A stretch of DNA of 64,000 nucleotides. It comes from Tribonema minus. Taxonomy: Eukaryota; Sar; Xanthophyceae; Tribonematales; Tribonemataceae. The first letter of the stretch is position 1. The number at the start of each line of letters is the position of its first letter. Positions 1,490 through 64,000 of this stretch are shown here, piece after piece. The stretch is taken from the NCBI GenBank assembly GCA_017506865.1, contig JAFCMP010000323.1, forward strand, positions 62,001-126,000. Reading direction: 5' to 3'. Under the pieces are notes generated by a model that saw only the letters and a list, made by a program, of their open reading frames with translations, made no database searches and was not told where the DNA came from. The position numbers were made by a program, and so were the translations under genes.

Positions 1490-1494
1490 GTAAT
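1490..1494. repeat. Target site duplication, left copy (GTAAT)
   Basis: GTAAT directly abuts the outer end of the left LTR, and the same five bases follow the right LTR at 13937-13941. Ty3/gypsy integrases typically make five-base duplications, so this fixes the element ends. Confidence 0.85.
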
Positions 1495-1903
1495 TACACA
1501 AGCTGGTACTATATAGAGTATCATTCTGTGAATGGTCTGCAAGGTACGGTCTTACTTTGGGTTGTTGTTGTTGGGCTGCTTCAGTAGAAGGCTCCTGCAT
1601 TGCTGGTTGGTGGTCTTGGTTCGTCTCTGCTGCCTGTTTATTTGGGTTATAATCCCCTCATCAAAGGTCAGCACTCAACTTCAACAGTTGAGCACTGCGC
1701 CTATGTCCAAGGGACCCCAGGCCTTGTGAGACAGCAACCAAGGTCCAACTTTATTGATTTACAGCAACTACAGACCTTATTACATCATATAGCAGACAAT
1801 TAGGACAATTCCACATGATAAGTATATTGAGACATAGAACTGTGCGGCAGTACTGAGAACGTTCCCCATGGACTGTTCCCAAACTACGCATCTAACCGTG
1901 ACA
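1495..1903 (-). repeat. 3' LTR of the retrotransposon
   Basis: This 409-bp block is repeated at 13528-13936. Read on the plus strand it starts TACACAAG, against TGCACAAG in the other copy, so the canonical TG end has mutated here. It ends GTGACA. Two further differences occur at about 1599 and 1637. It contains the promoter and polyadenylation region by analogy with other LTRs, but I see no clear motif for either. Confidence 0.95.
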
Positions 1904-1915
1904 ACTCCCCCTTTT
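1904..1915 (-). other. Polypurine tract
   Basis: On the minus strand the bases next to the 3' LTR read AAAAGGGGGAGT and are followed by the LTR start TGTCAC. This is the expected position and composition for the primer of plus-strand DNA synthesis. Confidence 0.8.
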
Positions 1916-2241
1916 CAGGCTCTGTGCACTAGAGCGAAGCGCGTCTATGCACTGAGCACACTTGGCAGGGATCAACGCTGACCAGTGATTAAACAACGGT
2001 TAGAAATGTAAACGTAATTCTGCTTTGACCAATTGTCACCCTCAACTCATATGAACAGGCTGCTACCCAAAATGTGATCGGTCCTTCATTTTGGCAGGGT
2101 CACAAGGGGGCCTTGCAGTATGAGTACGCGTGCCGTACTTGCTGCTCTCGGGCACAAGTCCTGGTCTCACGCGACGCATCTTCAAAGTTGTAACATGTGT
2201 TCATCGGAGCGATGCAACAGCATGCTACTGCAACAGTCACT

Positions 2242-5200
2242 TCAAGTGATGAGCTGTGTCTCAGTCTCATCTTCAACTTCAATGTCAATGACCTCTTGGG
2301 CAGCACCTGTGCTCCCAACGGTGGTCAGCAATAAATTCCAGCTCGACATGGGGCAGCTGCCCGCCTCAGCGGAGCTGGCCGCAACGTAGTAGTCAGGCCT
2401 CAGCTTGACCGTAGTCAACTGCTGAGCCGGCATGCCATTGAAGCGAATTCGAAACGTGAACTTGCTGGCGCGGGGCATGAATTCAACCAGCTCTCCGCGG
2501 CTCCAGCCCGTTCCCATCCTGACACGTACAATTTGGCCAGTATACGCGGCGCCAAAGTCATGTGGCATGACTGGGCACAGGGTCTGCTCAATGACTGGGT
2601 TTGTGGCTGTGCTGCCCAGAGCGGTGGCGCGCGCGCGCACTGACTCTGCTAAGGCAATGGCACCCAAAAGCTGCTTCTTTGTGAAGTCCTCCCAGTCACT
2701 GTCTTCATAGCGTACACGCCAGTATGGCGCGGCGTACCCTGCCACTGATCCCCATATGTATGTCACATGTTGCAGCAGGCTCTCACGGTGCTCGCGCACG
2801 ACTTGAGTGCCCATTGGAATCAGTGTCAGCGCAGCATCCTTGGTCATTACCCGTCGGTCCTCTCGTGGAGTACGTTGGGCATAATCTGGCATGTCATCAG
2901 CCCGGCGCAGCTCATAGAGCGCGTGAAACACATCCAGCGTCCAGGGCATGATCAACTCGAGCGCCTCGTCTTCAGTTTTCCACCCGCTAAGGGATCCATC
3001 TCTGGTCACCCAGCGGTAGTCCCACGAGCCATTGGCATTCGCGCGGCGGTCCGCCAGGCGGTACAACCACTCGTTGAGCGGGACATCTTTCAGTTGCTCC
3101 TCAGTGAGCATCGCGTGGGGGTCAGTGGCCTCCAGGTGCTCTGGGCGCAAGTGAAACGGCTTCATATTCATCACATGTGCACGGGTGCGGCGAATGCGTC
3201 TGCCCATCATGCGACAGGAGAACGACAGGCCTTGGTCACCGGCGTCAGTGATCACCACCCAGGGGCCCAGAAACTTGGGGTCAAGCTTCTTTGAGCGGCC
3301 CTTCTCATTGGCCTTTCGTATCATGACCAAGTCCCCAACTTGCACGCGCAGCGCGCGCTTGACGGCCTCATTGTGGCGTGACACTCTTTCTGCCTTGCGC
3401 TCAAAAGCGTCGTGGGCAACCTGGTGCGCTAAGCGCAGATTTGAGATTCTGCGCTCAATCTCCGCGTTGAGCTCACTCGGGCGGTCATCTTGCATGAAAG
3501 CGTCGTATGGCAGTGACGCTTCGCGACCATACATGCAAAAGAAGGGTGTGAGACCCGTCCCCTCGCGTGGTGTACTGCGCAATGCGTACTGTATGGCTTC
3601 AACACCCTCGTGCCAGTTGTCTTGCTTGACATTCACCCAAGCCGTCAGAGCTGCCATGATTCTCTCATTCATGCGCTCAGCCACTCCATTTGACTGGGGG
3701 TGGTAGGCACTGGTGTCAATCTTCTTCACCTTGAAGATCGTGACCAAATCGGCCACAACCGCATTCAAGAATTCTTTTCCTTGGTCTGAGACCAGTTCTT
3801 CAAACAGCGCACCCATCTCCAAGAACACTTTGAACAAGAAGCGGGCAACTGTCTTGCAAGTTTTGTCTTTGATAGGGCACATCCACACAAAGCCGCTGAG
3901 GCTATCCACCACCGTAATGAGGCCTACATGTCCCTCGCTGGACTTAATAGAGGCCATGGTGATGTCAGTGTGCGCGCGTTGGAGTAAGCGCGTGGGGGGC
4001 ACCAGCATTTGCTTGGCCTTGCCAGTCCCAGCCTTTTTACGCTCCAAGCACGCGGTGCAGCTAATCACGTATGCGCGTATGTCCTGGTTCATTTTGGGCC
4101 AAAACCAGCGCTCAAATATGCGCAGTTGAGTGGCGCCAACGCCAGCATGGCTCGCTGTGGCATCATCATGGCCCAACCTCAAGACTAGGGCGCGCAGGCT
4201 GTTGGGCACTACCCACTGCTTCAGCACCTGGCCACGCTTTGGGTGACTAGTGGCAAAGTGTACAAGTAGGCCATCATCTTCTTGATTGTACCATTCCTGA
4301 TTTGTCATCAGGTGCAATGCCAGCTCGCTATCCTGGGGGAGTGCACCTCCTAGGACCACGCGCAGCACGGCAGCGCAGAATGGATCGGTCTGTTGCACTT
4401 CAATCACTGCCTCCCTGCTCAGCATAGCTGGCGTAGGCATGGTCTGGCCTGCGATCACCTCTTGTACGAGGGCTGGCGCGGGCCTCGGTATCTTGCGCTT
4501 CTTGCTGCGGTCTGACGGCTCTGCGTCAGCGCTCATTGCGTCAGCAAGCTGAGCGCTGCCAGGGGTGGCGGCCTCAGGCTGAGCGCTGCTAGCAGCTGTG
4601 CGCGCTTTCTTTGCTGCCCTCTGTCTGGCTACACTGGGCTGGCCGGCACTGCCGTCATGAGACGTGCTTCTAGCCTCGTCCATGCACGCGTTGGCATACA
4701 TACACATGGTAGCAGGTGTGAGTAGTGCTAGAGATGGGGTTCCCCCGTCATCTTGTCGCAAAGTCTCATCAAACGTTTCGTCCAGCAGTTCAATTGTTTC
4801 TTTGACTGAAAGCTTTGCAAGGCGCGCTGCAAGGCTGTTGTGCTCGCTGGCGCTTGCAATAGCTAGCTCGTTGAAGTCAAAAGGCACGCCGTACTCAGTG
4901 CTCACCATGCGTCCTCGGAAGGCCGAAACCTTGACCGAAAGCTGCTTGGGGAGTTCGTCCGTGAACGTAACCCCCGAGGGTGGCGCCTCGTAGCATGGTA
5001 TGGCATCTGACCATTGCTCGTCGGCATGATCATACAGGCGTGGCGTATCAAGCTCTGATTGCATAGGCAGCCGTGATGGGCCATCAGCATTTGAATTTGC
5101 GAGGCCCGGGCGGTGCTGCACTGAGATGTCATACTCAAGCAGCCGCATTGCCCAGCGCATGAGCTTTCCACTGTTGTCTTGCAATGTCAAGAGCCAGCGT

Positions 5201-8200
5201 AATGCTGCAGCATCTGTGACCACTGTGATGGGCATACCCCACACATATGGGCGGTAGTGGTTCAGGGACAAGACAACTGCTAGGCATTCCAGAGCAGTGG
5301 CCCCCAGCTTTGCATCTTGTACGGAGTTAATTTTTGAAAAATAACCCACAACCACCTCCTTTACCTCCTCCCCTTCAACAGTGCGCCGGCGTCCCGGTGC
5401 GGGACCCGGTGCAGCTTCATTCCCTGCCAACCGCTTTACAGGCTTGAATTGTGTCAGTATGCCGCTGCATGCGGTTTGTGACGCATCAGTGTACAGTACA
5501 AACGGCAAGTTGAAGTCTGGGTGGGCTATTAGCTCCGCAGAGCACATGGCTGCTTTCAAGCCATCATATGCTTTTTGTCTGCGCGCATCCCAAATCATAT
5601 CTGCATTCGTCTTGGTGCATTCAACTAGCGGTGCAGCAAGTGCTGCAAAGTCGCGCACATACCGGCGGTAGTAGTTGAAGCAGCCCAGCACTGTCTGCAC
5701 CAGTTTCTTGTCAGCCTTCCCATTTTTAGTGGGGTTGCTCATGTCCATCATCGCTTTCAATTTCTCAGGGTCTGGGCGTAAGCCATTGGCCCCCACAATG
5801 TGTCCCAAGAACTTAATTTCATTCTTGAAGAGGAGACACTTGTGCCTGGCCACACTCATGCCACCATTCTTGATGCGCCTTAGCACTTCACGAATGTGGG
5901 CAATGTGTTCCTCAATTGTGTGATCATATATCAATACATCGTCGATGTAGACCGATGCGTAGCTGCTCAATGTCTCCTCACCCAGTACGTCATGCATCAG
6001 TCTGGTGAACTGTGCAGGCAAGTTCACCAGTCCAAATGGTGCCACGGTGTACTGCCACAGACCTCCATCAGGTGTTCTGAATGCGGTCTTTTCCTTGTCA
6101 CATCCTCTGATTGGCACTTGATGATAGGCGCCAGCCATATCCATGGAGGATATGTATTTGGCCCCCTTCATTTTGTGTATCACATCGTCTATGTTGCCAA
6201 TGCCTCGGCAGTCGCGCTTGGTGACCGCATTCAGCCTTCGAAAGTCCACACAGAAGCGGATCTTGTCACCTTGCCTGGCTAAGACAGGATTGCATGCCCA
6301 AGGGCCCGAGGAGGGCTCGACTTGGTTGCGCACCGCCATGGCGCGCACATGATCCATGATGTACTCTGCTTCTTTCTGTGCCCACCTTCTTGCCTTTTCA
6401 GCAATGGGCATGGCATCACCAGTGTCAATTTCGAACTCCGCCAGGTTTGTAACTGTGGGATTCTTGGGGTCCTTGGCAAAGACAGTGGAGTGCTCCAGTA
6501 TCACATCCATAAGGTGGTCGGCGTAGGTGCGACCATCTTTTGCAATACCGTACAGCTCGCCAGTCTTTGGCAGCATTTCTCGGAGTTCTTCTTCCGTGCA
6601 CGCTTCTTGAGTGGTCCGGGTAGTTGGGACTGACTCTCGAGCACTTGCAGTGGCCGATGCAACGGGGCACGCGTTCTCATCTTTACCTCCAGCGGAGTTG
6701 GCTGCGACAGCCTGAGTCCGCAAGGTATGAAGTGCGCGCAGCGACGCCATTCTGAAGACTGGGTCAGGGTGCAGCTCAGAACTAGCTTCTAATAGCTTGT
6801 CCATCAGCAGCGGCTCCGTGACGTCATCAAATTCTATGATGTCTTCCTTATCAGCAGGTGTCAGCTCCCCTAACAAGGTGCTTCTGGGTACCACAACAGG
6901 CAGGTGCGAGTGGTTCACCAGGCGTACTTGCATAGTACAGCAGGGTACTTGCATAGTACAGCAGGGCCTAGCGATCACCATACTCTTAGCCACTTTAACA
7001 CCGCGGTCGCCTAGGGCGAGCAGTGTCTGTGTGTCAATGGGGCGAATCACAGCTTCAAAAGGCTGTACCCCCATGATGGGGGGGAAGGGTGCAACTTCAA
7101 CATCAGTAGTCGAATTGGGGGGCAGTAGCACGTCTTCTGTCATACTCACTGCGCGGCGCGCCGGTGGTGGGCCACTGGCTTCGCCCACTAGCAGTGTCTG
7201 CATGGTCTGCACTGAGCTGACCTTCTGGTGGCCTTCAGCGTCGGTGCGTTCCCTCATGCGCAGCGTAGGGCCTTTGGCGCCTAGCGGGGCATACGTCATC
7301 TCGGCGTAGTTAAATGTTGAGTGGTACATGCCAAAGAAGTCACCACCAACAATGGCGGGAATCTCAAGATTCACAACATAAAACTTGTGCTGTACGAGGA
7401 AGTCTCCAAACCGCAGAGTGGAGTGGAATACACCCTGTATCTTGACTAGCGTAGAATCGTCAGCAAGTTCAATGACCGTGTGGTCCCCCTTTTCAAGTGG
7501 GCCTACTGCTCCCGAAGCAATAGCATTCGCTTGTGTCATTGACATTATTGAAGTTTCTGAGCCGCTGTCCAGCAGGGCTTTAAACTCAACTTCCTTCAAT
7601 GCCCGATGGCCATGTTTATGGGTGCGTGCAATCAGCGTACCAAACCGCTGTTTGCTGGGCTTTCCAGTAGGCTGCATCACACGTTCGTAGGCACGTCCAG
7701 GCTCATTGGGAGCGGACACGCGGGCAATTGCGGGCAATTCAAACTGTGTAGCGCCTTTCTGCGATGAGCGCTGCGGCTCATTGGGCATAAATGCGCGCAA
7801 CGCCACTTGTAGTTCCTTTACTGCGGGCAATTCAGTGTGTGTAGCACCTTCATGCGATGAGCGCTGCGGCTCATTAGGCATGGGCGCTTCATGCGATGAG
7901 CGCTGTGGCTCATGAGGCATGGGTGCGCGCAATGCGGCAGGCAGTTCCCCTGCGGTGTTTGTTGCGTCAGTGGGCAGCACAGAGTGCTGGTTGCGCGCGC
8001 GCTGCACCGACTCGAGCTCTCTCAGTACGGCGGCCATAGCGCTAACCCTAGCACTGCCTAACCCTAGTTGGCGTGCCAGCTCAAGTGGGGTTGGGCTGGT
8101 CAGGTCGTCGGTATCTAGGTCATGCGAGTCAGCCCTGTCAGAGTCAGAGTCATTGTCTGAGTCCTCCACGAGCTCTGGCACGTCACCAGCTTCAGACTCA

Positions 8201-11200
8201 TCATCAGAGTCCACAAGGTCTGGTAAGTCATCCATTTCGGGGTCATACGTGGGGGGCTGGTAGTCCCACCGCTCAGTCTCAAACTGCGCAAGTTGCAGTC
8301 GCGAAATGCGAACTGACTGGGGGTTTTCAGCGACGTGCATGTGCTTGCCTTGACTCACTGCCATCCATTCGGGCGGGGGTGCAGTGCAGTCGTGGTCTAC
8401 GCGGTGGCCTCTTGGGTTCAAGCACTCATGCTCAGCAACCGGGGGCAAGTCAAATACACCAGATCCCAGCAGCGCTACGCCAAGGTGGAATGCCATGCGA
8501 GGCATAACCATGTTGACAAGCCACAACTTCAAATCTTCAACCCTGGCACATGTTGGCAATGGCTTTGTGAAGGTGAGCAATACAGCAAGCTCCTTCAGCG
8601 ACAGCACGCGCGCGGCATCCACTGGACCAGCATCAAGTACACAGGGCACATGAGCCAGCAGGTCCCGTGGGGGCTTCCCTGGGTGTCTACGCACAGGGCT
8701 GGGCATGCAATCATCAGCGTGAAACACGGCCTTGAAACCCCTCGCACGGGGCTTCCAAAAGAATGTTGTCTCAGGGCAGCGCAAAAACGCACGCACAGAG
8801 GTCTGCGGACTGGCACGTTCAATTGTATTTAAAAGGGCGCCAAAACGGTCGAGCGCTGCCCCAACAGAGGGGCCGGTGCGCACAACCAGGACAAAAACTC
8901 GGCGACGGTGGCAAGGCACACCGAAGTCCGATCCCTTGAGCTTGGAAACGTACACGCAATAACCGTGCGTCAGCAGCTGCGCCTGCGCCTGGCTCCAAAT
9001 CTTGGAGCTGAGCATGGCGACGACGTTCTCAATCAACACGCAGCGCAGCTTGGCCCTGATAATAAGCTGCGCGGCGAGTAATGTCACTTGGGCGGCTTCG
9101 CCCTCCATCTGCAAACCGTTTGCAAAGTCGGTGCAAGGGGGGGAGATAGTGGTCAGGTCAGGATCCAATGTCACCAGTGCCTTGGTAACGGCAGGATCGC
9201 TAAGACATGACTGCATGACACTATCAACTTCAGGGTGAAGAGAGCTGTAGGCTGCGCAAACGCGGCTACACTTGTCAACGGCAAGTGCAGTTTTAACCGC
9301 GAGCCCAGCTCTTCCTACCTGTTCTAGTCCTTCGTCCCAGCCTCCAAGGCCGCAGCAGAGTGATGCGTGGACGACTAACCGCGCAGTCCCAAGCGCCGTC
9401 TCAACGGTCTGGGGTCTCTGTGGAGCACGGTCACCAACAGGCACGACAACAGGTGCTGCAGTCAGCGAAACTGCAAGATTGTCGGCGCTCATGGTGGCGT
9501 TTTGGGCAGCCTCTACAGTGGGCATACCTGAAGCATCATCAACAGCTGATGGCACAACTGCATCTACCCCGCCTGGGGCAACGCACGTGTCAAGCATTTC
9601 AACATCGGCAATATTGGGGGGAGAGGCTAGTGCACCATGTACTAGCGCGTCCCTAGGCATGCGTTCATCACCTACAGGTGCAGCAGCGCTCAACGGAGGT
9701 GCTGTAGCCGCAGGGGCAATCAGTGCAGCAAGCAACACGCGTATGTCAGGCACGCATACTGGCGTGTCAGCAACTAGGGCAGGTGCTGCAGTGCCTGCAT
9801 CAAGCGTGTTCTCACATGGGGGCAGGGTCATGATGTACGCCGCCAGCTCGTCACGGCTCAGCTCGCCGATGGGGCGCGCGGCGTTGACGCGCGGCGCCGG
9901 GGCCTGAGGTGCGGGCGCAAGGGGCGCCGGGGCGCGGAACTGCAGCGGCGCCGCGAGGGGGCGCTGCGGCATCGGGCCACCGGAGGGCGCCGCAGGCCGC
10001 ATGCCACGGTTGCGCGCGTCCAGGCGGCCCTGGTGTAAGATAATGGCCGCCTCCGAGCACTCCGGCTGCGCCTTGTGCCAGGCCGGCATGATGCCCGAAG
10101 GTACCCACGACTCGCAGTTGTGGCAGCGCCAGTCGCCGTTCTCGCAGTACCACGAGGGGTCACGGGGGCGCATCGGCAAGCCGTGGGCGTTTGGGGCCTG
10201 AAAGCGGCGGGGCGGCCCCGCCTGCGGCCTGGGGATCGGCGCGGCGGCGGCGGCGGCAGCCGCCGCTGCGGCGGTGGTCGCCGCGGTCTTCTTTGCAGCA
10301 GCTGTCTTGACGGCGCGGCGGCCCTTGCTGGAACGCGCCTTGCGCTTCTTGCTCTGGTTGCGGCGCGTGCCGGATGAGTCGCTGTCGGAGACGCTGGCGT
10401 CAGTCGAGTTGGCGTCGTCTGCTGAGCCCTTGCCGTTCCTGTTGCTCCATAAGCTGTGAGCCTTGCTGGCAAGCACGGAAAGCGCTTCGGCGTACACGTT
10501 GTCAACAGTGATGCTCAGACCCTTGCGCTCAGCGGGGGTTAAGTTCTCGATGAAGCGAGATCGGACGTAGTCCGTGTTGTTCTTGTACCCAGCCGCGCGG
10601 CCGAGGCGCGTCAGTCGCAGGTTGAAGTCACGCGGGTTCTCATCGTGCGCGCGTAAGAGGTTAGCAAATGCGCGCGCGGCATCAGCCTGAGCAGTTGGGT
10701 TATCGAAATGCGCGATTAGAGCTGCACGGCGCTGCGTGTAGTCCATGGCAACCCAGCCAATGACACGGCCACCCACGTCTATCGTGAGAGACGGGGTCAC
10801 CTTGTTCGCCTTTTGCGCCGCCTTAGCCAGGGCCGTGGAGTAAGCGCGTGGGTCAATGCCCGACTCCACCAGCGCCGCGTGCAGGCCGTCCAGGGTGCCG
10901 CCGCATTCGCCCGCCACCCTGGACATAGGGTTCACCAGTCCGAGGTCTTTAGCAGTGGAATAATCACATGGGTTTAGGGGACGAACCACAGCAGGGCCCT
11001 CAGCAATGCTGTCAGCACTCCCACCGCCGTTAATGTCATTGACGCGCGACTCCCCCTTCTTGCGAAGGTGAGCGCGGCCAACAGGCGAGGCCAGCATGGC
11101 AGGCATTTCGTCCTTTGCAAACGCGCGCAGGCGACGCTCGACATCAATTGCATCTGTTGTGTCACGTAGCAGCTGGGCGCGGGCGCGGGCCCTCGTGATC

Positions 11201-11763
11201 GCGGCCAGAACCGTGCGAGGCTGTTCAGCGCGAAGCTCGAAATCAGCCCTGGCATTGGTTAACTGTTCGATTTCCACGGCAGACAGTCGGACTTGGTACC
11301 TAGCAATTTCTCTCTCCTTGCCCGCGCTGCCCTGCGACGTGCGTCTGGCATGAGCCTGCAACGTCTCGAGGCTTTTCAGGCGTTCCGTGCAATCAGCTGC
11401 CTCACCGGTGAGGCGCTCGAGCCCTGAGGTTGCACAGTCGTGCAGGCCGGTGAGGATCTCTTCGATGGTCGCCATGGCGAAAGAGTCGACATGGAGGTCA
11501 AGCGGGGGCGGCGGCAGGGGGGCCTCGGCGTCCTCGTCGCCGCCCTCTTCGGCATCGTTGCTGTTCTCGTCGTCGCCGGCGTCCTCGGCGTCTGCCCCGT
11601 CCACAGCCTCAGCGAGGGGGTCGGGGGCAGCGGCGTCGTCGCCGTCGTCGTTCTCGGGGTCCTCCACGGAGGACTCGGGCTCATAATCGGGTTGGCCGGG
11701 CTCGGGGACAGGGGCCCTCTTGGAGGCTCCCCTTCCCTTCCCCCCTCTTTTGGAGTGGGCCAT
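2242..11763 (-). CDS. Gag - DNA cytosine-5 methyltransferase - Pol polyprotein
   Basis: A single ORF of 3173 codons; the ATG at 11763 is preferred over upstream TTG codons. Approximate residues: acidic N-terminus; Gag-like helical region about 330-450 (DFNLRLTRLG, AGY, FIENLTP); Ala-rich linker; C2HC zinc-finger-like cluster about 540-570; DNA methyltransferase about 800-1110 with motif I (CCGLGGWDEGLEQ), catalytic SPPC about 873, IENV about 912, a PxxRxR-like motif (GVPCHRRRVF) about 952 and motifs IX/X (LSLKELAVLLTF, NMVMPRMA). Then a Ser/Asp-rich acidic linker and short NEPQRSS repeats, a retropepsin (LLDSGSETS about 1400), reverse transcriptase (VDFRRLN about 1840, YIDD about 1940), RNase H (TDAS about 2092), and integrase with an HHCC finger ending CTAC about 2570 and D,D,E about 2600, 2662 and 2699. 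A GPW segment about 2837 and a Tudor-like tail (YWRVRYEDSDWEDF about 3022) follow. All key catalytic residues I looked for are present. A 21-bp tandem duplication near 6930-6970 gives CCTMQV twice. Confidence 0.95.
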   Translation of the reverse strand: MAHSKRGGKGRGASKRAPVPEPGQPDYEPESSVEDPENDDGDDAAAPDPLAEAVDGADAEDAGDDENSNDAEEGGDEDAEAPLPPPPLDLHVDSFAMATIEEILTGLHDCATSGLERLTGEAADCTERLKSLETLQAHARRTSQGSAGKEREIARYQVRLSAVEIEQLTNARADFELRAEQPRTVLAAITRARARAQLLRDTTDAIDVERRLRAFAKDEMPAMLASPVGRAHLRKKGESRVNDINGGGSADSIAEGPAVVRPLNPCDYSTAKDLGLVNPMSRVAGECGGTLDGLHAALVESGIDPRAYSTALAKAAQKANKVTPSLTIDVGGRVIGWVAMDYTQRRAALIAHFDNPTAQADAARAFANLLRAHDENPRDFNLRLTRLGRAAGYKNNTDYVRSRFIENLTPAERKGLSITVDNVYAEALSVLASKAHSLWSNRNGKGSADDANSTDASVSDSDSSGTRRNQSKKRKARSSKGRRAVKTAAAKKTAATTAAAAAAAAAAAPIPRPQAGPPRRFQAPNAHGLPMRPRDPSWYCENGDWRCHNCESWVPSGIMPAWHKAQPECSEAAIILHQGRLDARNRGMRPAAPSGGPMPQRPLAAPLQFRAPAPLAPAPQAPAPRVNAARPIGELSRDELAAYIMTLPPCENTLDAGTAAPALVADTPVCVPDIRVLLAALIAPAATAPPLSAAAPVGDERMPRDALVHGALASPPNIADVEMLDTCVAPGGVDAVVPSAVDDASGMPTVEAAQNATMSADNLAVSLTAAPVVVPVGDRAPQRPQTVETALGTARLVVHASLCCGLGGWDEGLEQVGRAGLAVKTALAVDKCSRVCAAYSSLHPEVDSVMQSCLSDPAVTKALVTLDPDLTTISPPCTDFANGLQMEGEAAQVTLLAAQLIIRAKLRCVLIENVVAMLSSKIWSQAQAQLLTHGYCVYVSKLKGSDFGVPCHRRRVFVLVVRTGPSVGAALDRFGALLNTIERASPQTSVRAFLRCPETTFFWKPRARGFKAVFHADDCMPSPVRRHPGKPPRDLLAHVPCVLDAGPVDAARVLSLKELAVLLTFTKPLPTCARVEDLKLWLVNMVMPRMAFHLGVALLGSGVFDLPPVAEHECLNPRGHRVDHDCTAPPPEWMAVSQGKHMHVAENPQSVRISRLQLAQFETERWDYQPPTYDPEMDDLPDLVDSDDESEAGDVPELVEDSDNDSDSDRADSHDLDTDDLTSPTPLELARQLGLGSARVSAMAAVLRELESVQRARNQHSVLPTDATNTAGELPAALRAPMPHEPQRSSHEAPMPNEPQRSSHEGATHTELPAVKELQVALRAFMPNEPQRSSQKGATQFELPAIARVSAPNEPGRAYERVMQPTGKPSKQRFGTLIARTHKHGHRALKEVEFKALLDSGSETSIMSMTQANAIASGAVGPLEKGDHTVIELADDSTLVKIQGVFHSTLRFGDFLVQHKFYVVNLEIPAIVGGDFFGMYHSTFNYAEMTYAPLGAKGPTLRMRERTDAEGHQKVSSVQTMQTLLVGEASGPPPARRAVSMTEDVLLPPNSTTDVEVAPFPPIMGVQPFEAVIRPIDTQTLLALGDRGVKVAKSMVIARPCCTMQVPCCTMQVRLVNHSHLPVVVPRSTLLGELTPADKEDIIEFDDVTEPLLMDKLLEASSELHPDPVFRMASLRALHTLRTQAVAANSAGGKDENACPVASATASARESVPTTRTTQEACTEEELREMLPKTGELYGIAKDGRTYADHLMDVILEHSTVFAKDPKNPTVTNLAEFEIDTGDAMPIAEKARRWAQKEAEYIMDHVRAMAVRNQVEPSSGPWACNPVLARQGDKIRFCVDFRRLNAVTKRDCRGIGNIDDVIHKMKGAKYISSMDMAGAYHQVPIRGCDKEKTAFRTPDGGLWQYTVAPFGLVNLPAQFTRLMHDVLGEETLSSYASVYIDDVLIYDHTIEEHIAHIREVLRRIKNGGMSVARHKCLLFKNEIKFLGHIVGANGLRPDPEKLKAMMDMSNPTKNGKADKKLVQTVLGCFNYYRRYVRDFAALAAPLVECTKTNADMIWDARRQKAYDGLKAAMCSAELIAHPDFNLPFVLYTDASQTACSGILTQFKPVKRLAGNEAAPGPAPGRRRTVEGEEVKEVVVGYFSKINSVQDAKLGATALECLAVVLSLNHYRPYVWGMPITVVTDAAALRWLLTLQDNSGKLMRWAMRLLEYDISVQHRPGLANSNADGPSRLPMQSELDTPRLYDHADEQWSDAIPCYEAPPSGVTFTDELPKQLSVKVSAFRGRMVSTEYGVPFDFNELAIASASEHNSLAARLAKLSVKETIELLDETFDETLRQDDGGTPSLALLTPATMCMYANACMDEARSTSHDGSAGQPSVARQRAAKKARTAASSAQPEAATPGSAQLADAMSADAEPSDRSKKRKIPRPAPALVQEVIAGQTMPTPAMLSREAVIEVQQTDPFCAAVLRVVLGGALPQDSELALHLMTNQEWYNQEDDGLLVHFATSHPKRGQVLKQWVVPNSLRALVLRLGHDDATASHAGVGATQLRIFERWFWPKMNQDIRAYVISCTACLERKKAGTGKAKQMLVPPTRLLQRAHTDITMASIKSSEGHVGLITVVDSLSGFVWMCPIKDKTCKTVARFLFKVFLEMGALFEELVSDQGKEFLNAVVADLVTIFKVKKIDTSAYHPQSNGVAERMNERIMAALTAWVNVKQDNWHEGVEAIQYALRSTPREGTGLTPFFCMYGREASLPYDAFMQDDRPSELNAEIERRISNLRLAHQVAHDAFERKAERVSRHNEAVKRALRVQVGDLVMIRKANEKGRSKKLDPKFLGPWVVITDAGDQGLSFSCRMMGRRIRRTRAHVMNMKPFHLRPEHLEATDPHAMLTEEQLKDVPLNEWLYRLADRRANANGSWDYRWVTRDGSLSGWKTEDEALELIMPWTLDVFHALYELRRADDMPDYAQRTPREDRRVMTKDAALTLIPMGTQVVREHRESLLQHVTYIWGSVAGYAAPYWRVRYEDSDWEDFTKKQLLGAIALAESVRARATALGSTATNPVIEQTLCPVMPHDFGAAYTGQIVRVRMGTGWSRGELVEFMPRASKFTFRIRFNGMPAQQLTTVKLRPDYYVAASSAEAGSCPMSSWNLLLTTVGSTGAAQEVIDIEVEDETETQLIT

Positions 11764-12889
11764 CTGTTCCCGTCGGGCAAAATACAACGCAAGAGGTTAG
11801 CAAGGCACGCTAACTAGTTGCCATAAATGCTGGGCTTACATACGCTGTGAGTGTATGCGTCTGATAGCACGAGGCCACATGCAAATGGCGGGTGATATCA
11901 ATTGGGGCACTGTTGAAAACGTGTGAGGCAGCACACACGAAATGCTGTCAATTTGGGTTCAAGTAAGGATACCAGTGAAACCGTCCCACCCGAACACTGC
12001 GTAGAGCCTTGCAAGTACTGTTCTGAAGTGTGATAGTGGTGAAGCCCACAGTTCGCACGTGGAACAGCAGCATCGTAGGATGTAGCATTGCGAGTTTCAG
12101 CTTGTTTTGCGGGCAGTCTACATGCCACACCTCACGAGGTCAAGACGATGCAGGACCCTATGGTGCAAAGTCAAACAAGAGAGGCCAACTCAACCTCTCA
12201 AGACGCACTGTGTACAGCAGGGCGCTTACGCTTGGCAGTTCTCTAGCGCTGAGAAACAAGGAGGGGAGTCATCGAAGACATGCTCAGCCCGTGGAATAGA
12301 GTGTCGTAACACTCGTACCAAGCTCCCATAATCTCGCCACGTTGCTGCAATGCTTGTCCTAATAATCCAGGACACTCAAGAGGTTGCACGCTCGAGAGTT
12401 CCTAAGTTGACTGAGGCAACGCTGCGGGTTCGGGTTAACCACACGCAACCAGGGCACGGTTGCTGCAACGACGCATGCGATGGACAAGCCGACCATACGC
12501 ATGCATGGATGACAGATACTCTGCGCTCAGAGTAGCTTGGACCAGAGGCTGCCATGTTGCGAGTCAGGTCTACAAGTTGCTATTCGGTTTATTCGGAGAT
12601 GAAGTAGAGATTGAAGTGAAAATGAATCGCGCGGGCCTACCACGATGGCAAGTGTGCATTGGACGAGTGATAGAATGGAATATTACGAGGGGAGCGATAG
12701 TATTGGATGGATGAACGAGTGTTGTGAGCGTGCGAGGCGTTGAAAGGAGATGCAGGTTCGCCTGATTTTGGAGCCAGTTTACACAAGCTGGTACGTATGG
12801 ACTTGTATTTATAAAGGCCCAAGGGAGGCCGGGTTGCCTATGCAATCGAAAAGCTTGCGTCAACGCAGCAGCCTAGTCTGCGCTGTGCC
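11764..12889 (-). other. Retrotransposon 5' leader between relic ORF and Gag
   Basis: About 1.1 kb of internal element sequence upstream of the Gag ATG. It is outside the LTR and holds no ORF resembling a known protein. It probably includes the packaging signal and Gag translation leader, by position only. Confidence 0.5.
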
Positions 12890-13527
12890 CTAGGAGCTTG
12901 GATACCGGCGCCGCAACACAGCCCAGCATTCGCGCTCCACGTGTGTACGCCATGACGCGCTCCGCCAACTCCCGCGCCATATGCTCAGCTCAATGAGGAT
13001 CTGACGCTTAGCTAACCCGGCCTTGCGTAACACATCTGCCTTCCCCCCCCCTGAGCACAGTGCTGAGTGCATTGCCAACTCCTTAACAAAAAGGCTTGTC
13101 TGCTTGCCCAGCCGTCCGTACGACTCCTGCACGAATGGCACAAAAGCCCAAGATGACGTCAAGGTGCCGGTGTGGTGCTTGACCTTCGCGTCCTCCCCCA
13201 CCCCAGCAGCATAGCCGTCCGTGTTCGAGGCATTTGTTTTGCCTGTCAGGTACGAGCTCGCTGTGGGCGCGCGCACACTTGTGTCTAGCACTATTCCCTT
13301 GTTACGGTATGCACTGCTAAAGTGCAGACACCCTGGGTCAATGACTGTGTCCGCCCGATACCCCGGTACCTTGAAGACGCTAGCGTCCTCATTGCGGACA
13401 ATAGAGACATGGTGCTGTCTCAAGATGCGCTGCAGGCACCGCTTTTGGGCAGTGTGTGTCGCGTTGTGCCCCCGTATGTGCTGGCTGGGGCAGCTGATCG
13501 CATGCGTGGAGGTGGGGCTCACATCAC
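12890..13527 (-). pseudogene. Relic ORF in the leader, resembling the C-terminal part of non-LTR retrotransposon proteins
   Basis: The minus strand is open from the LTR edge (13534) to 12890, about 214 codons. There is no ATG in the first two thirds, so it is not an ordinary start-to-stop gene. The readable stretch has YRADTVIDPGC, then GIVLDTSVRAPTASSYL, then SWAFVPFVQESYGRLGKQ. This spacing (R-PD-like, LDxSV, SY, FVPFV-E-G-G) resembles the segment after the reverse transcriptase in LINE-like proteins, a region that may be a restriction-like endonuclease. It is in the same orientation as the polyprotein, about 1.1 kb upstream of it. It could be a captured fragment of another transposon or a decayed accessory ORF. 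The family call rests on recall of pattern, not a search. Confidence 0.45.
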
Positions 13528-13936
13528 TGCACAAGCTGGTACTATATAGAGTATCATTCTGTGAATGGTCTGCAAGGTACGGTCTTACTTTGGGTTGTTG
13601 TTGTTGGGCTGCTTCAGTAGAAGGCTCCTGCGTTGCTGGTTGGTGGTCTTGGTTCGTCTCTGCTGCCTGGTTATTTGGGTTATAATCCCCTCATCAAAGG
13701 TCAGCACTCAACTTCAACAGTTGAGCACTGCGCCTATGTCCAAGGGACCCCAGGCCTTGTGAGACAGCAACCAAGGTCCAACTTTATTGATTTACAGCAA
13801 CTACAGACCTTATTACATCATATAGCAGACAATTAGGACAATTCCACATGATAAGTATATTGAGACATAGAACTGTGCGGCAGTACTGAGAACGTTCCCC
13901 ATGGACTGTTCCCAAACTACGCATCTAACCGTGACA
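13528..13936 (-). repeat. 5' LTR of the retrotransposon
   Basis: 409 bp, 406 of them identical to the block at 1495-1903. It keeps both canonical ends, TG on the left and CA on the right in plus-strand reading. For the minus-strand element this copy drives transcription. Confidence 0.95.
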
Positions 13937-13941
13937 GTAAT
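13937..13941. repeat. Target site duplication, right copy (GTAAT)
   Basis: It matches 1490-1494 exactly and directly follows the LTR end GTGACA. Confidence 0.85.
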
Positions 13942-14429: not shown

Positions 14430-16700
14430 GGACAGCTAGTAGGATCGTGCAAGCCCACAGCTGCCAGTGGCATAAGTCTGTTGCGCTGAGCCCCCCCTCT
14501 CCCCCCCCGCTTACTGTCTCTCCCGGTGACAATGATTTGCCCACGGTCATGTTACACACACACACGCAAGCACGCACCTGCCACCGTCGCCATGGCCATG
14601 CATGGCCACTGGCATGTGCCCATTCTTGCCATCACACACGCATCCTTGCTGCATGCACCCTCCGCGGACTTGCTCAGTTGTTGCTTCTTGCACTACCTAA
14701 CCCTAACCCTCACCCCAAGTACAACATGAGCACGGTCACTGGTAACCACCGAAATAACCTACTGTAGGTCAGTGCTGACATGGTGGCTCCTAGAGGCCCT
14801 GCTTGCGTACCAATCACGAATCAGGTGTAAGCAAGTGCGTGTCAACAAGCAGACACAACTGACAACTGTCACAAAAAGCTAATACTGACATATGCTGTTT
14901 ACCCGGGACGTTTCGCGTTGCATTCCCATTCATACAATCAGACCGGCAAAGAGAGATGCAGGCAGTTGACAGGAAGGTTTGCTCTCAATTGAGGTGGCGC
15001 GCAAGTCACTGCAGCAACGGCGCCAGAGACGGGTGACAGCGCACGACAACTGCGACCGCTGCGTCTACTAGTAGTACAGTTGGATGCTCTTTTTCTCGCA
15101 GACTTTGCAGCGCCCTGACCAGCGTCTGAGCGTGTTCAGAAGCACGGTGCATGCTCACGCGCTCGTGTCGCAGTAGCCACTCAAAAAATGCATGATCCTC
15201 CGACGACATGGCATGCTGGAACACAGCGCCAACTTCAACTGCAAAGATGGCATCCTCAAAGAGGGGGTGAGTGGCTAGTGCGAGAGAGGTGCTGCGGATT
15301 GGGATTCTGGCAACGACCTGTGCGGTGAAGATCTCCGGCCACTGTGTGTGCGCAAACACGCACGTTTCCACGGTATTTATGACATAATACGGATTATTCT
15401 CTATGATCTGCAACGCACACTCTGCTGCGCTTTCATCCCAACTCAGGTCATAACCGACTGGGATGGAAGCGGACACCGCTCTGAGCACTGCCATATCCTC
15501 CATGATGGCTGCACTAGCAACCGCGTATTGGAACTCGAATTGGCAAACGTCCATCCGGGTGAAATGCCACCACCACAGATGCAGGTTAGAAGTCTGAGTG
15601 GCAGCCATGGCACAGCCCTCGTGATCCCAATAATGGTCCTCTGACACCTGTTCTGCCGCCCACGAGGCGACTCTCAAGGAGCCTTGCTCCACAGCGCACA
15701 GCGTGAGCTCATGCAGGTCACGCCAGATTGAAAGCGTGGAGCACGGCGCGCTGGTCCGAAGCGCTGCCAGCACGTCAACTCTGTCTCCGGCAATAGCTCC
15801 CTCCGTGATGGCTTGCACACCTCCGTGCAGGCTCTCCATGCACCTGAGTGTCTGCTGCAAACACTCCAAGGTCGCCCACCTGCCGATGGCCCGGCAGAGC
15901 GGCACTGTCCTGTAAAATGCCCAGACCCACGAAAGCCGACTAGGGTACTTGGCCGCCTGTGCATGCGCCGTAGTCATGTTATGGGATGCTGAACACTGCC
16001 GCCAGAGCTTCGACACGCCGCCGAATAACAGGTGCTGCTGCTTGCCAGCGTAGCGTAGAATGTGCCTTACCACATCAGGGTGGTTCAGTGCGGCACCATT
16101 AGGCTCAAGCGCAGCGGCAGCTTTCTTGTTGCCATGCATCCTCCGCTGTATAGCGCTTCGGGCCTCGCCTGCGCCTGCACTGCGTCAGCAGACCAAACAG
16201 AACAAAACCACACACCTGAGGGTTGGTTGCGCCAAATGAGGGGTGCTCTATCAACTCACTCAAGTGTAGGTTCGGTCAGCTGACTCGAGCTGCTGCAGTG
16301 CTCGAAGCACTAGTGCACCAGCAAGGAATTGCACACCAGCGCTCTTGGCACATCCAACAGATGCCTTTCAAAAATAAAATAGCCATTGGCGTGAGTTGAA
16401 CAATCGCCAGCAACGCAAATGTGAGTCGCTGCAGGCTTCTAACCTCAAAGCAGTCACCTCACTGATCGCAGCATCATCAGCTGGCAAGGTTATCGAGGCC
16501 CAGCCATCGATAATGGGGCTCTATGATAGATTGGGCTCCATGATACGCTCACCTGTCCAAGAATCTGGTCTGCAGCCACCGCGTGCCTGCCAGAGGCATT
16601 GCACGCAAAAGTGGACAGCAGGCGCCTGCTGAAGATGAAGCTGACTTCACAGCGGTCTGTAGGCTGTGTGTTTGACAAGTAAGCGTCAAAACTTCAACGC
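14430..16700. repeat. Segmental duplication, unit 1
   Basis: This block aligns with 17090-19570. Shared landmarks run in the same order: a 'ggatcgtgcaagccca' phrase, a poly-C tract followed by a 'gacaatga' phrase, a 'tggaggccctgct'-like phrase, the F-box-like gene, and an upstream region with 'gctcgaagcactagtgcac'. It therefore includes the gene plus about 0.6 kb on each side. Around 14697 there is a CCCTAA stretch. Confidence 0.8.
15006..16139 (-). CDS. F-box-like protein, intact member of a local family
   Basis: A single-exon ORF of 377 codons starting at the ATG at 16139 (MHGNKKAAAAL). Residues about 18-50 (HPDVVRHILRYAGKQQHLLFGGVSKLWRQ) have the pattern of an F-box, which would recruit a Skp1-type ubiquitin ligase; this is a weak match made by eye. 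The rest is alpha-helical, rich in Trp and Ala, with loosely repeated units such as VEQGSLRVASWAAEQVSEDHYWDHEG, recalling divergent ankyrin-like arrays of protist F-box families. There is no transmembrane segment or signal peptide. Copies 2 and 3 are frameshifted while this one is open, so it is the likely functional gene. The substrate is unknown. Confidence 0.7.
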   Translation of the reverse strand: MHGNKKAAAALEPNGAALNHPDVVRHILRYAGKQQHLLFGGVSKLWRQCSASHNMTTAHAQAAKYPSRLSWVWAFYRTVPLCRAIGRWATLECLQQTLRCMESLHGGVQAITEGAIAGDRVDVLAALRTSAPCSTLSIWRDLHELTLCAVEQGSLRVASWAAEQVSEDHYWDHEGCAMAATQTSNLHLWWWHFTRMDVCQFEFQYAVASAAIMEDMAVLRAVSASIPVGYDLSWDESAAECALQIIENNPYYVINTVETCVFAHTQWPEIFTAQVVARIPIRSTSLALATHPLFEDAIFAVEVGAVFQHAMSSEDHAFFEWLLRHERVSMHRASEHAQTLVRALQSLREKEHPTVLLVDAAVAVVVRCHPSLAPLLQ

Positions 16701-17089: not shown

Positions 17090-19570
17090 GCAGGACAGCT
17101 GTAGTGTATTGGATCGTGCAAGCCCATCAGCTCACTACACCAGCCGTCGCAGCTGACACAAGCCTGTAATGCTCCCGGCCAGAGCTCCCTTCCTCCCATT
17201 GGAAAACCGGGGGTGCGCAGAGAGAGAGAGGAGAGCAGCCATCCCTGGCCGCAGGCCGCCCGCAGGCGCCTCGAGCTGGGAGAAGAAGAAGTGATATTAT
17301 CGCTGACACAAAACAAGGGCCAGCGGGAACCTTCCGTTCCGTAGGGGTCCGTAGGGGCACCAGAACCTTCAAGAACTTGCTAGAACTTACTGGAGAAACC
17401 CTTAGAACTGGACCGTGCCCTACCCCTAGTGTGCACTAACTAAGTATTGGACCATCTCATATTCCAACACCCCCCCTTTTTGCCCTCCTACTGTAGTGAC
17501 AATGAGTCGCCCACATCTTGCTACACACACAAGCACACGCCTGCGAACATCGCGACGCCGCCGCGGTCCCATGTGCCCCGCCATCAAAAGCACCCCTTGC
17601 TGCACTGTGACAAGTCGGACCAAGTCCGGACTTCAAGTTTCTAATAGCTCATTTTTGCTTCTACATGCACTGTACACTTCAGTACTATAACTGCGGGCTG
17701 ACATGGTAGCTCCTGGAGGCCCTGCTCGAGTACACCAGTGTAAGCGCGCAGCGTCAATTGAGTCAACAAGCAGGTACAGACGACACCTGTCACAATCTCA
17801 AGAAGTACGCGGTGTACGCAAGACATGCACATTGCGATCCAATAAATACATGCAAAGAGAACGCATGCATGCAGGTTACGGAAAGTTTTGAAATGAAATT
17901 CTGCTCTTGTGATGCGTGAGTCAATGAAGCTGTGGGGCCAGGGATGGCTGGCAGCGGAGGATCGCTTCAACCACTGCTGCCACAGCTGGGCGTCCTGCCT
18001 GTCGCAGGGTTAGCAGCGCTTCAAGCAGCATGTGGGTGTCTTCAGACCTGGGGTGCAAACTCACGCGCCTGTGTTGCAGTAGCCATTCAAGGAACGCATG
18101 GTCCTCCGAGTCCATAGCGCTGCCGAACACAGCGACAATGTCAAATGCAAATATGGCGTCTCAATGAGGGGGTGAGTGGCTAGTGCGAGAGAGGCGCTGT
18201 AGATTGCGATTTGGGCAATGTCCTCCGCAGTGAAGATCTCCGGCCAGTGTTTGTGCGCAAATAAGCACGTGTCCACCATTTCCATGACAAGAAATGGATA
18301 ATTCTCTACAATCCCCAACGCACAATCAGCTGCACTTTCTTCCCCACCCAGGTCATAACAGTCTGGGATGGCGGCGGACACCTCCCTGAGCACTGCCACA
18401 TCCTCCATTAAAACTGCTATGGCAATTGCCTCCTTGAAGTCGAATTTGCAAACCCGCATCCTGACGGAGTGCCACCGCCACAGACGCAGGTTGGAAGTCT
18501 GAATGGCAGCCATGGCACAGCCCTCGTGATCCCAATAATGGTCCTCTGACACCTGTTCTGCCGCCCACGAGGCGACTCTCAAGGAGCCTTGCGCGGCAGC
18601 GCACAGCGTGAGCTCATGCGCGTAACACGAATGCAAGCGCGGCGCGCTGGTCTGAAGCGCCATCAGCGCGTCAACTCGGTCGCCAGTGACAGCTCCCTCT
18701 ACCACCGCCTCCACGCCTTCAGGCAGCCTCTTCATGCACCTGAGCGTTTGCCGCATAGATTCTGCGTTTGCCCACCTGCCGATGGCCCTGCAGAGCGGCA
18801 CTGTCCTATGAAAAGTCCAGACCCACAAGAGTCTGCTCGGATACTTGGCAGCCTGCGCATGCGCCGTGGTGGGGTCATGGGATGCTGAGCACTGCCGCCA
18901 GAGCTTCGACACGCCGCCGAAGAACAGGTGCTGCTGCTTGCCAGCGTAGCGTAGAATGTGCCTTATCACATCGGGGTGGTTCAGGGCGGCACCATTATGC
19001 TTAAGCGCAGCGGCAGCCTTCTTGTTGCCATGCATCCTCCGCTGTGTAACGCTGCGGGCCTCGCCTGCGCCTGCGCTGCGCCAGCAGACCAGACAGAACA
19101 AAACCACAAACATGAGGGAGGGGTTGGTTGCGCCAAATGAGGGCGAACTAAATCAATTCACTCAAGTGTAAGTAAAATCAGCTCCCTCAAGCCGCTGCGG
19201 TGCTCGAAGCACTAGTGCACAGCAAGGCATTGCACATCAGCGCTGCTGGCACATCCACATGCCACAGATAATGCCTGTTTACAGCCATGCGTGAGCGTCA
19301 GCTTGGTGCCCGAACCACATGCAATGAGAAGGGTGAGTCCCGGCTATGAATCTCAGAAGCCGTCGCCTCGCTGTTCGCAGCACCATCTGGCAAGCCAGAG
19401 TGTTTGATACGCTCACCTCTTACAACAATCTGGTCTGTCTGCCGCCACCACCGCCTGCCTGCCAGTGGCGGTGGACGCAGGAGTGAACAAAGAGCGCCTG
19501 CTGAAGCTGAAAGCGGGCTCAACAACAGTCTGATGATCTTTCACCAAGTTCAAGTCGAAACCAAAACTTG
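17090..19570. repeat. Segmental duplication, unit 2
   Basis: The tandem partner of 14430-16700, offset by about 2.7-2.9 kb and in the same orientation. Both gene flanks are recognisable but contain many small indels, so the duplication is not recent. Confidence 0.8.
17921..19035 (-). pseudogene. F-box-like family copy 2, broken by one frameshift
   Basis: The reading frame from the ATG at 19035 matches copy 1 closely (MHGNKKAAAALKHNGAALNHPDVIRHILRYAG). Near 18165 one base is missing relative to copy 1, and the frame shifts and ends after about 40 unrelated codons. The original C-terminus continues in another frame at 17921-18130 (SEDHAFLEWLLQHRRVSLHP ... SLAPQLH). A frameshift followed by conserved sequence suggests recent loss, or a base-call error. 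If the base is restored in a better assembly, this would be a second functional paralogue. Confidence 0.8.
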
Positions 19571-63648: not shown

Positions 63649-64000
63649 GTGCGCACACACTTTTTTTGCTTGAAAATGTTATCTAGGTCTGCATGTGTGT
63701 ATGTATGCAGCAGCCACAGCAGCAGGCTTAATGAAATTGTTGCAACCTTTTGAAACATCCTCTTCTTGCGGTCCTCATCCCTGGGAAGCAGGTTGCCGTT
63801 GCACCGTAACACTGGCATGTAACACTATGTAATATACACCTCATGTATGAAGTTTGCTTTAAATATGAAGTATTCATGTAGGTTTTGCTTGGCCTTCATC
63901 GACATTCTGACGTGAAGGACGTCCTGGGCGTTGTGCATGGAGGAGTTTGAAACGCATGCTTTCGTCGCTCAAGGGTGATGAGACACCTGCACATGCGCAC
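63649..64000 (+). other. Intron of the SNARE gene
   Basis: No ORF continues the SNARE helix here. The next exon is expected past the window edge. Confidence 0.5.

What the first reader, a model, noticed from the sequence alone, without database searches (positions are those of the whole stretch)
8450..9380. A Ty3/gypsy-type retrotransposon encodes its own cytosine-5 DNA methyltransferase between Gag and protease
The sequence shows methyltransferase motifs I, IV (SPPC), VI (ENV), VIII-like and IX/X within one unbroken polyprotein frame. Published work by de Mendoza and colleagues (2018) described capture of cytosine methyltransferases by retrotransposons in Symbiodinium and Klebsormidium, so the principle is known. 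This would be a further case in a different host, with the enzyme inside the Gag-Pol frame. A plausible role is methylating new copies so that they are tolerated or hidden by host chromatin.
Basis: partly seen in the sequence, partly recalled or inferred. Interest (0 to 1): 0.9.

Follow-up and report, generated by a model that had tools for sequence, protein, structure and literature searches.

The report
Jumping genes carrying DNA methylation enzyme

Summary
On the minus strand, window 1490-13941 is a young Ty3/gypsy element: 409-bp LTRs with 3 mismatches, a GTAAT duplication, and one 3184-aa frame ordered Gag / C5-cytosine methyltransferase (DNMT) / protease / RT / RNase H / integrase / Tudor-like tail. 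The DNMT has its catalytic motifs, passes Pfam's cut-off (52.5 bits) and folds confidently (pLDDT 90). The host is Tribonema minus (100% match to a named protein on a contig of identical length).

Beyond the finding: 281 DNMT loci were listed genome-wide. 126 of 150 listed RT rows have a DNMT upstream, mostly at 2.4-2.8 kb. RT and DNMT trees agree at the main splits of three deep RT clades, so the module looks ancient here. Between related families dN/dS is 0.13-0.18. No DNMT3 similarity was found, unlike the published KnitGypsy-Dnmt3. In clade X motif IV is degenerate (PPC to TRC); in one of its families a 25-residue catalytic loop is missing in 27 of 28 loci, yet the domain stays constrained (dN/dS 0.15-0.22).

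CpG decay marks both intact and dead families, so self-methylation is not shown. Verdict: new variant of a known kind; mechanism open.

The parts
1490..1494 (.). target-site duplication GTAAT, left
   Evidence: read
1495..1903 (-). 3' LTR of the element (TG..CA type; the left copy begins TA)
   Evidence: 409 bp, 3 mismatches to the other LTR
1904..1915 (-). polypurine tract AAAAGGGGGAGT next to the 3' LTR
2242..11796 (-). single Gag-Pol frame, 3184 aa; first ATG at 11763
9400..11763 (-). Gag-like part (no Pfam Gag hit); zinc-knuckle-like RCHNC at 10114-10128
   Evidence: position; no family over cut-off; the part before the DNMT is shared between families (window 9166-10413 is 32% identical to P0033 residues 41-436)
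8347..9399 (-). C5-cytosine DNA methyltransferase domain, residues 800-1150; catalytic Cys888 at 9133-9135
7543..7575 (-). aspartic protease active site LLDSGSETSIM
   Evidence: PF09668 E 0.025, below cut-off
5794..6267 (-). reverse transcriptase, RVT_1, residues 1844-2001
   Evidence: E 9.4e-27
5131..5517 (-). RNase H, residues 2094-2222
   Evidence: E 6.2e-21
4033..4209 (-). integrase zinc-binding domain, residues 2530-2588
   Evidence: E 5.9e-16
3700..3984 (-). integrase core (rve), residues 2605-2699
   Evidence: E 2.4e-9
2668..2760 (-). Tudor-like stretch in the C-terminal tail, residues 3013-3043
   Evidence: PF21743, 16.1 to 21.2 bits, below the cut-off of 27.2
13528..13936 (-). 5' LTR
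13937..13941 (.). target-site duplication GTAAT, right

Best explanation
This is a structurally intact Ty3/gypsy LTR retrotransposon of Tribonema minus whose Gag-Pol protein contains a C5-cytosine methyltransferase domain, predicted to ride in the particle with RT and most likely to bind and methylate the element's own new DNA copy at CpG. Shown by calls: the anatomy, the intact motifs and predicted fold, the repeated presence of the domain upstream of RT in three deep RT clades, and purifying selection on it between related families. Inferred: cleavage by the protease next to it, packaging, DNA rather than RNA as substrate, CpG as target. The domain was probably acquired before these RT clades split and inherited with the RT. 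In one clade (X) motif IV decayed, and in one family the catalytic loop was deleted while the rest of the fold stayed constrained, so the domain probably also has a non-catalytic job (binding of cDNA or RNA, or of SAM), and the mark itself can be dispensed with or supplied in trans by sister elements or the host.
For: Anatomy. Fold. Seven of 8 family-A1 DNMT loci have an LTR on both sides, elements of 11.6-12.4 kb, this copy included. 126 of 150 listed RVT_1 rows have a listed DNMT 1.5-7 kb upstream on the same strand, 115 of them at 2.4, 2.7 or 2.8 kb after rounding. RT and DNMT trees share A1+A2, F+H, D with K, and X67-69 with strong support. dN/dS: A2/A2b 0.128, A1/A2b 0.146, A1/A2 0.183, B pairs 0.134-0.175. 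PPC, ENV and RxR present in 43 of 43 loci read of families A, B, I. CpG transitions exceed other C/G transitions: A1 23/650 against 13/1778 (p 2.8e-6), A2 11/586 against 8/1786 (p 0.002), B 8/464 against 10/1506 (p 0.048). Published DIRS-type retrotransposon DNMTs methylate CG in yeast (PMC5890265, Results read).
Against: No activity, expression or methylation data. CpG decay has a similar ratio in the dead X families: pooled 6/816 against 5/3510, ratio 5.2, p 0.0086, 11 events, so it cannot be credited to self-methylation. Multiplied families with a dead domain show that catalysis is not obligatory. KnitGypsy-Dnmt3 and SymbioLINE domains gave no methylation in yeast (called inconclusive in that paper). 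The best structural matches include DNMT2, a tRNA methyltransferase, so an RNA substrate is open. Within A1 the few differences between copies show no constraint (e.g. 4 non-synonymous, 0 synonymous for L001/L002), as expected for decay after insertion; the I and J pairs are only weakly constrained (0.577, 0.507).
Confidence: 0.5

Rival explanations
1. Structural or binding module: the DNMT fold is kept mainly for binding (cDNA, genomic RNA, target DNA or SAM), and methylation is secondary or lost.
For: X clade: PPC replaced by TRC in 4 of 4 read copies of X68 and in the one read copy of X69; loop missing in 4 of 4 read copies of X67 and, by the split match 2-90 or 24-90 plus 115-349, in 27 of 28 loci (my count); dN/dS of the X domain 0.15-0.22; X68 still predicted as a DNMT fold, pLDDT 85.4 and over Pfam's cut-off (37.2 bits).
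Against: Families A, B, C, D, E, F, I, J, K keep the PC pair in the copies read and 43 of 43 loci read of A, B, I keep PPC, ENV and RxR, which pure binding would not require.
Confidence: 0.25
2. Host-directed writer: the element-encoded enzyme acts in trans on host chromatin or on other elements, shaping where insertions are tolerated, together with the Tudor-like reader tail.
For: CpG decay is found across families, dead ones included; weak Tudor-like tail; an Ectocarpus Ty3 element with a C-terminal Tudor domain has a T. minus homologue (PMC12477816, passages).
Against: The host has DNMT5, CDCA7 and HELLS according to PMC10538959 (passages), which suffice to explain CpG methylation; the Tudor match is below cut-off.
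Confidence: 0.12
3. RNA methyltransferase of the DNMT2 kind acting on the genomic RNA or the primer tRNA.
For: DNMT2 chains are among the best profile and fold matches.
Against: HaeIII, HhaI and DNMT1 score about equally; the DNMT2 hallmark CQPYTR (recalled) is absent here and is found in a separate gene, L034.
Confidence: 0.08
4. Passenger: a domain caught once and carried along with little use.
For: Loss of catalysis in X; no sign of constraint between near-identical copies, weak constraint in the I and J pairs.
Against: dN/dS 0.13-0.18 between A and B relatives and 0.15-0.22 in X; motifs present in 43 of 43 loci read of A, B and I.
Confidence: 0.04

Closest known systems
KnitGypsy-Dnmt3 of Klebsormidium nitens (de Mendoza et al. 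2018, PMC5890265; Results and Discussion read)
   Same: Ty3/gypsy-type proteins with a C5-methyltransferase inside the polyprotein frame; several copies; purifying selection on the domain.
   Different: There the domain is DNMT3-related and the legend describes a DIRS-like repeat arrangement; here no DNMT3 chain is among the 52 PDB matches at E 1e-5, the repeats are ordinary LTRs with a 5-bp duplication, the host is a stramenopile, and a dead lineage exists.
SymbioLINE-Dnmt and SymbioDIRS-Dnmt3 of Symbiodinium (same paper)
   Same: Hundreds of retroelement-borne DNMTs in an alga; orphan (non-DNMT3) type in SymbioLINE.
   Different: LINE and tyrosine-recombinase elements, not LTR elements with an rve integrase.
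DAM- and DCM-bearing retrotransposons as lumped in a 2019 opinion paper (PMC6338049, passages)
   Same: It says that DAM- and DCM-encoding Ty3/gypsy and DIRS elements occur in stramenopiles among others.
   Different: It lumps adenine and cytosine enzymes and names no stramenopile cytosine case in the passages seen.
Gypsy-10_Ec32 of Ectocarpus with its Tribonema minus homologue (PMC12477816, passages)
   Same: Ty3 element of a related alga with a C-terminal Tudor domain.
   Different: No DNMT is mentioned for it in the passages seen; whether it is the same clade was not tested.
Orchid Ty3/gypsy elements with an m6A RNA demethylase domain (PMC9289625, search listing only)
   Same: A base-modification enzyme added to a Ty3 polyprotein.
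   Different: RNA demethylase, other host.
Free-standing DNMT proteins P0006-P0008, P0010, P0011, P0013, P0014 from metagenomes
   Same: Nearest relatives that are not parts of polyproteins, 30-34% identical to P0002; in one clade with the T. minus domains (95/96).
   Different: Predicted proteins of 416-430 aa with PF00145 as the only Pfam domain; origin and context unknown.

Membership tests
Ty3/gypsy LTR retrotransposon (Metaviridae) | two long terminal repeats and a 4-6 bp target-site duplication | tested here: met
   409-bp LTRs, 3 mismatches, GTAAT on both sides
Ty3/gypsy LTR retrotransposon (Metaviridae) | domain order protease, RT, RNase H, integrase | tested here: met
   the protease rests on the DSGS motif and a sub-threshold profile match
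Ty3/gypsy LTR retrotransposon (Metaviridae) | primer-binding site and polypurine tract | tested here: inconclusive
   Polypurine tract present at 1904-1915; no TGG-type primer-binding site at the edge of the 5' LTR by eye
C5-cytosine DNA methyltransferase (PF00145) | profile match over the curated cut-off and motifs I, IV (PC), VI (ENV), VIII (RxR), X | tested here: met
   motif names recalled; the NCBIfam dcm cut-off is not reached
C5-cytosine DNA methyltransferase (PF00145) | C5-MTase fold | tested here: met
   AlphaFold2 pLDDT 90.4; Foldseek top matches DNMT2, MET1, ZMET2, HhaI, HaeIII with query TM about 0.6
C5-cytosine DNA methyltransferase (PF00145) | methyl transfer to cytosine in DNA | not testable with these tools
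   needs an assay
DNMT3 clade (as in KnitGypsy-Dnmt3) | closest similarity to DNMT3 | tested here: not met
   No DNMT3 chain among 52 PDB sequences at E 1e-5, nor among the 50 listed of 146 Foldseek matches at E 0.001. Caveat: no DNMT3 reference row was in the trees.
DNMT1/CMT | BAH, RFTS or chromodomain partners | tested here: not met
   none among the 9 Pfam families listed for the protein at E 0.1
DNMT5 | SNF2 ATPase partner | tested here: not met
   none in the protein; some lineages lost it according to PMC12344493 (passages)
DNMT4/RID and DNMT6 | phylogenetic placement | not tested
   no reference rows at hand
SymbioLINE / SymbioDIRS elements | LINE endonuclease or tyrosine recombinase | tested here: not met
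   rve integrase and LTRs instead

The most novel reading that the evidence does not exclude
A DNA methyltransferase is an ancestral, inherited module of a whole assemblage of Ty3/gypsy elements (Gag-DNMT-PR-RT-RH-IN) spanning three deep RT clades in Tribonema minus, and in one clade it has turned into a catalytically dead but selected pseudoenzyme that serves retrotransposition by binding rather than by methylating.
Probability: 0.45. Interest if true: 0.82.

Novelty: new variant of a known kind. Interest (0 to 1): 0.72.

Why it matters
Why a retroelement should carry the enzyme that usually silences it was left open by the 2018 paper. T. minus offers a natural experiment in one nucleus: many families with an intact DNMT beside multiplied families with a degenerate one, upstream of the same RT. 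Comparing methylation of young copies of the two directly tests the self-methylation idea. It also gives a described cytosine case in a stramenopile with an enzyme that is not DNMT3-like, beside the dinoflagellate and charophyte cases, so capture of cytosine methyltransferases by retroelements recurs more widely than those two lineages.

Tried and rejected
Ordinary explanations. Chance frame: rejected (E 6.5e-14, confident fold, conserved across families). Artefactual fusion: rejected (7 of 8 A1 loci have paired LTRs; 126 of 150 RT rows have the domain upstream). Dead relic: rejected for A, B, I (motifs present in 43 of 43 loci read; these were best-scoring loci, and one search also lists truncated copies and copies with stops).

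DNMT3 capture like KnitGypsy: not supported. Recent single capture: not supported (deep, RT-congruent trees), though the 23-row DNMT tree groups D/J/K with the free-standing P0006 type at 90/88 and the 48-row tree does not, so two captures are not excluded. The tree program warned of long branches (K in the RT tree; D, DNMT2 and the E-X join in the DNMT trees).

CpG decay as proof of self-methylation: rejected, as dead families show it too. In the first, unfiltered count B showed no clear excess (0.0284 against 0.0233) and A2 was swamped by flanks that are not element; one search filtered by local identity of at least 92%, and its numbers are used. The X counts come from 4 copies each; for X67, events shared by two copies were counted once (5 CpG cells became 4 events, 6 other C/G cells became 5).

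Led nowhere: full-length polyprotein search with residues 790-1150 gave no hit; viral contigs with P0006 gave none; '554 contigs' literature search; cryptophyte marker PF02972 rang in no control either, so it says nothing; Phaeocystis paper, passages, before the host was known. A light-harvesting protein pointed only to the red lineage.

Dropped: P0015, P0018, P0024, P0033, P0037 and the DNMT2 fragment L034 from the 48-row tree (short, double or partial); L033, nearly identical to L032, was not put in the trees. K's RT is frame-broken and only its longer open piece was used, unjoined. One search was given 90 of the 145 rows: second pieces of the same loci and most rows already or 28 were left out. 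One search was given 25 of the 35 LTR rows (short or weak ones left out).

Full report
What is in the window. The minus strand holds one open frame, 2242-11796, 3184 aa. It is flanked by two direct repeats, 1495-1903 and 13528-13936, 409 bp with 3 mismatches, one of them at a CpG (positions 1599/13632). The insert is bounded by GTAAT on both sides (1490-1494, 13937-13941) and a purine tract abuts the 3' LTR. Pfam finds RT, RNase H, the integrase zinc domain and integrase core, and the C5 DNA methylase at residues 811-974. The protease is seen as LLDSGSETSIM at 1408-1418 with a sub-threshold profile match. No Gag profile matches, but the part before the DNMT is shared with other families (32% to P0033 residues 41-436). 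A Tudor-like stretch at 3013-3043 is below its cut-off (16.1-21.2 bits, cut-off 27.2). The primer-binding site was not recognised.

The methyltransferase. Residues 800-1150 (P0002) hold motifs I, IV (SPPC), VI (ENV), VIII (RRR) and IX/X-like blocks (motif numbers recalled). The predicted structure is confident (pLDDT 90.4, pTM 0.90) and its best PDB matches include DNMT2, MET1, ZMET2, HaeIII and HhaI (50 of 146 matches at E 0.001 are listed). The single sequence finds no PDB chain better than E 0.096; a 17-row profile gives 52 at E 1e-5, led by a prophage enzyme (3g7u, 91.5 bits), DNMT2, HaeIII, HhaI and DNMT1, with no DNMT3.

The host. A homology search returned P0033, named by NCBI JKP88DRAFT_250746 of Tribonema minus, on a contig of 559,901 bases. 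It matches the window's own genome at 100% over all 469 residues on contig C4, which has 559,901 bases. T. minus is a xanthophyte, Ochrophyta, PX clade. PMC10538959 (passages) reports DNMT5, CDCA7 and HELLS but no DNMT1 in this species.

How many. P0002 gave 116 scored matches of 478 candidates; PF00145 gave 123 of 378; the degenerate domain gave 145 matches, 116 of 378 candidates scored (90 of its rows entered). Merged by position these are 281 loci, some of them fragments, at least four of them free-standing genes (L031-L034). The searches score only the best candidates, so counts are lower bounds. Of 150 listed RVT_1 rows (1416 candidates) 74 had a DNMT 1.5-7 kb upstream, and 126 after adding; the last two of the 150 rows are neighbouring pieces of one frame. 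Of the 24 without, at least six share their RT E-value (4.0e-32) with family H, whose DNMT list was cut; I did not read them. Family A1 has 8 listed DNMT loci, 7 with both LTRs, elements of 11.6-12.4 kb.

Families and ancestry. By sequence I name A1, A2 (with A2b), B, C, D, E, F, H, I, J, K and X. RT sequences for 12 rows form three deep groups: D+K, X67-69, and A, B, C, F, H, I (100/100, 98/96, 98/98; K is a partial, long row). The DNMT tree repeats A1+A2, F+H, D+(J,K) and X. B, C and I are placed differently in the two trees with weaker support. RTs of E and J were not read. In a 48-row DNMT tree the retroelement domains fall in one clade (95/96) together with metagenome proteins, while the named bacterial enzymes and the free-standing L031 and L032 lie outside (midpoint root). 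P0009 and P0012 (63% and 61% identical to P0002) join family A2 and continue into a protease-like stretch by eye, so the module also exists in other samples.

Selection. Nei-Gojobori dN/dS of the DNMT domain: A2/A2b 0.128, A1/A2b 0.146, A1/A2 0.183, B pairs 0.134-0.175, E pair 0.239, J pair 0.507, I pair 0.577. Wider pairs are saturated at synonymous sites. Near-identical copies show no constraint, as expected after insertion.

The dead lineage. Three RT elements with long frames and no listed PF00145 hit were read (L067-L069). All three carry the domain upstream of RT with motif IV changed: STRC in X68 and X69, and a 25-residue gap over the catalytic loop in X67. Further copies agree: 4 of 4 for X67 including L067 and 4 of 4 for X68 including L068. 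Genome-wide, 27 of 28 X67 loci match as two pieces ending at 90 and starting at 115 of the query; the 28th (C272) has the second piece only; the partial loci C25 and C264 show the same gap; C508, 49-59% identical, spans it and is another line (my count). The X domains are still recognised (L068 37.2 bits; 13 of 13 rows of the mixed alignment match PF00145 at E 0.1 or better), X68 still folds as a DNMT (pLDDT 85.4), and the three evolve at dN/dS 0.15-0.22, far less constrained than RT (0.03) but about equal to or tighter than their flanking linkers (0.18-0.31; one linker pair saturated). Family H has SSC and C has TPC in place of PPC, so motif IV has changed more than once.

Methylation footprint. 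Among near-identical copies, transitions at CpG exceed those at other C/G sites 4.8-fold in A1, 4.2-fold in A2 and 2.6-fold in B, but also 5.2-fold in the pooled X copies (11 events). This points to CpG methylation of these elements in the host and does not single out their own enzyme.

Literature. De Mendoza et al. 2018 (PMC5890265; Results and Discussion read) describe DNMTs in LINE, DIRS and gypsy-like elements of Symbiodinium and Klebsormidium. PMC12344493 (passages) restates them and lists orphan DNMTs; Tribonema is not named in its main text. PMC6338049 (passages) says in a lump that DAM- and DCM-encoding retrotransposons occur in stramenopiles among other groups. PMC12477816 (passages) reports a Tudor-bearing Ty3 element in Ectocarpus with a T. 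minus homologue. I found no paper on DNMT-bearing elements in Tribonema in searches; the library lacks most subscription journals and bioRxiv.

Judgement. The identity of the element is near certain (0.97), an old, selected module very likely (0.85), self-methylation of cDNA the leading but unproven role.

Noticed in passing
window 12890-13690, minus strand: A 266-aa frame in the leader between the 5' LTR and Gag-Pol that by eye resembles the C-terminal part of a non-LTR RT protein (recalled; no Pfam hit). This copy is 12442 bp long against 11610-11720 bp for four other A1 copies and 12142-12164 bp for two, so it may hold an extra piece.
   Followed up: partly
L031, L032, L033 (G000:C223 and C181): Free-standing single-frame DNMT genes of 367-390 aa with a FPC motif IV; L031 and L032 lie outside the retroelement clade. 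Possible host, viral or bacterial-type genes.
   Followed up: partly
L034 (G000:C523:358815-359333): DNMT2-like exon with the CQPYTR hallmark (recalled).
   Followed up: no
window 15006-16184 (-), 18061-19152 (-), 48982-49740 (+): Three related frames of a local gene family (the first two share MHGNKKAAAAL...LNHPDV); no Pfam hit for the first.
   Followed up: partly
window 63157-63753 (+) and 58828-59538 (+): Likely host genes: a Longin/SNARE domain and a HAD hydrolase.
   Followed up: partly
G000:C311:3907-4920: A DNMT of family C lies in an open frame of 6208 aa, twice the usual length; perhaps two elements head to tail.
   Followed up: no
G000:C224:915114-915935, C401:72063-72884, C168:1061328-1062149, C96:179864-180685: A further DNMT family, 25-26% identical to X68, in frames up to 2585 aa; not read.
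   Followed up: no
G000:C445:1488331-1501140: An A1 LTR pair 12.8 kb apart without a listed A1 DNMT between them; possibly a non-autonomous relative.
   Followed up: no
window about 53300-54400: Translations rich in LTLTLTP runs suggest interstitial CCCTAA-like repeats; not checked on the DNA.
   Followed up: no
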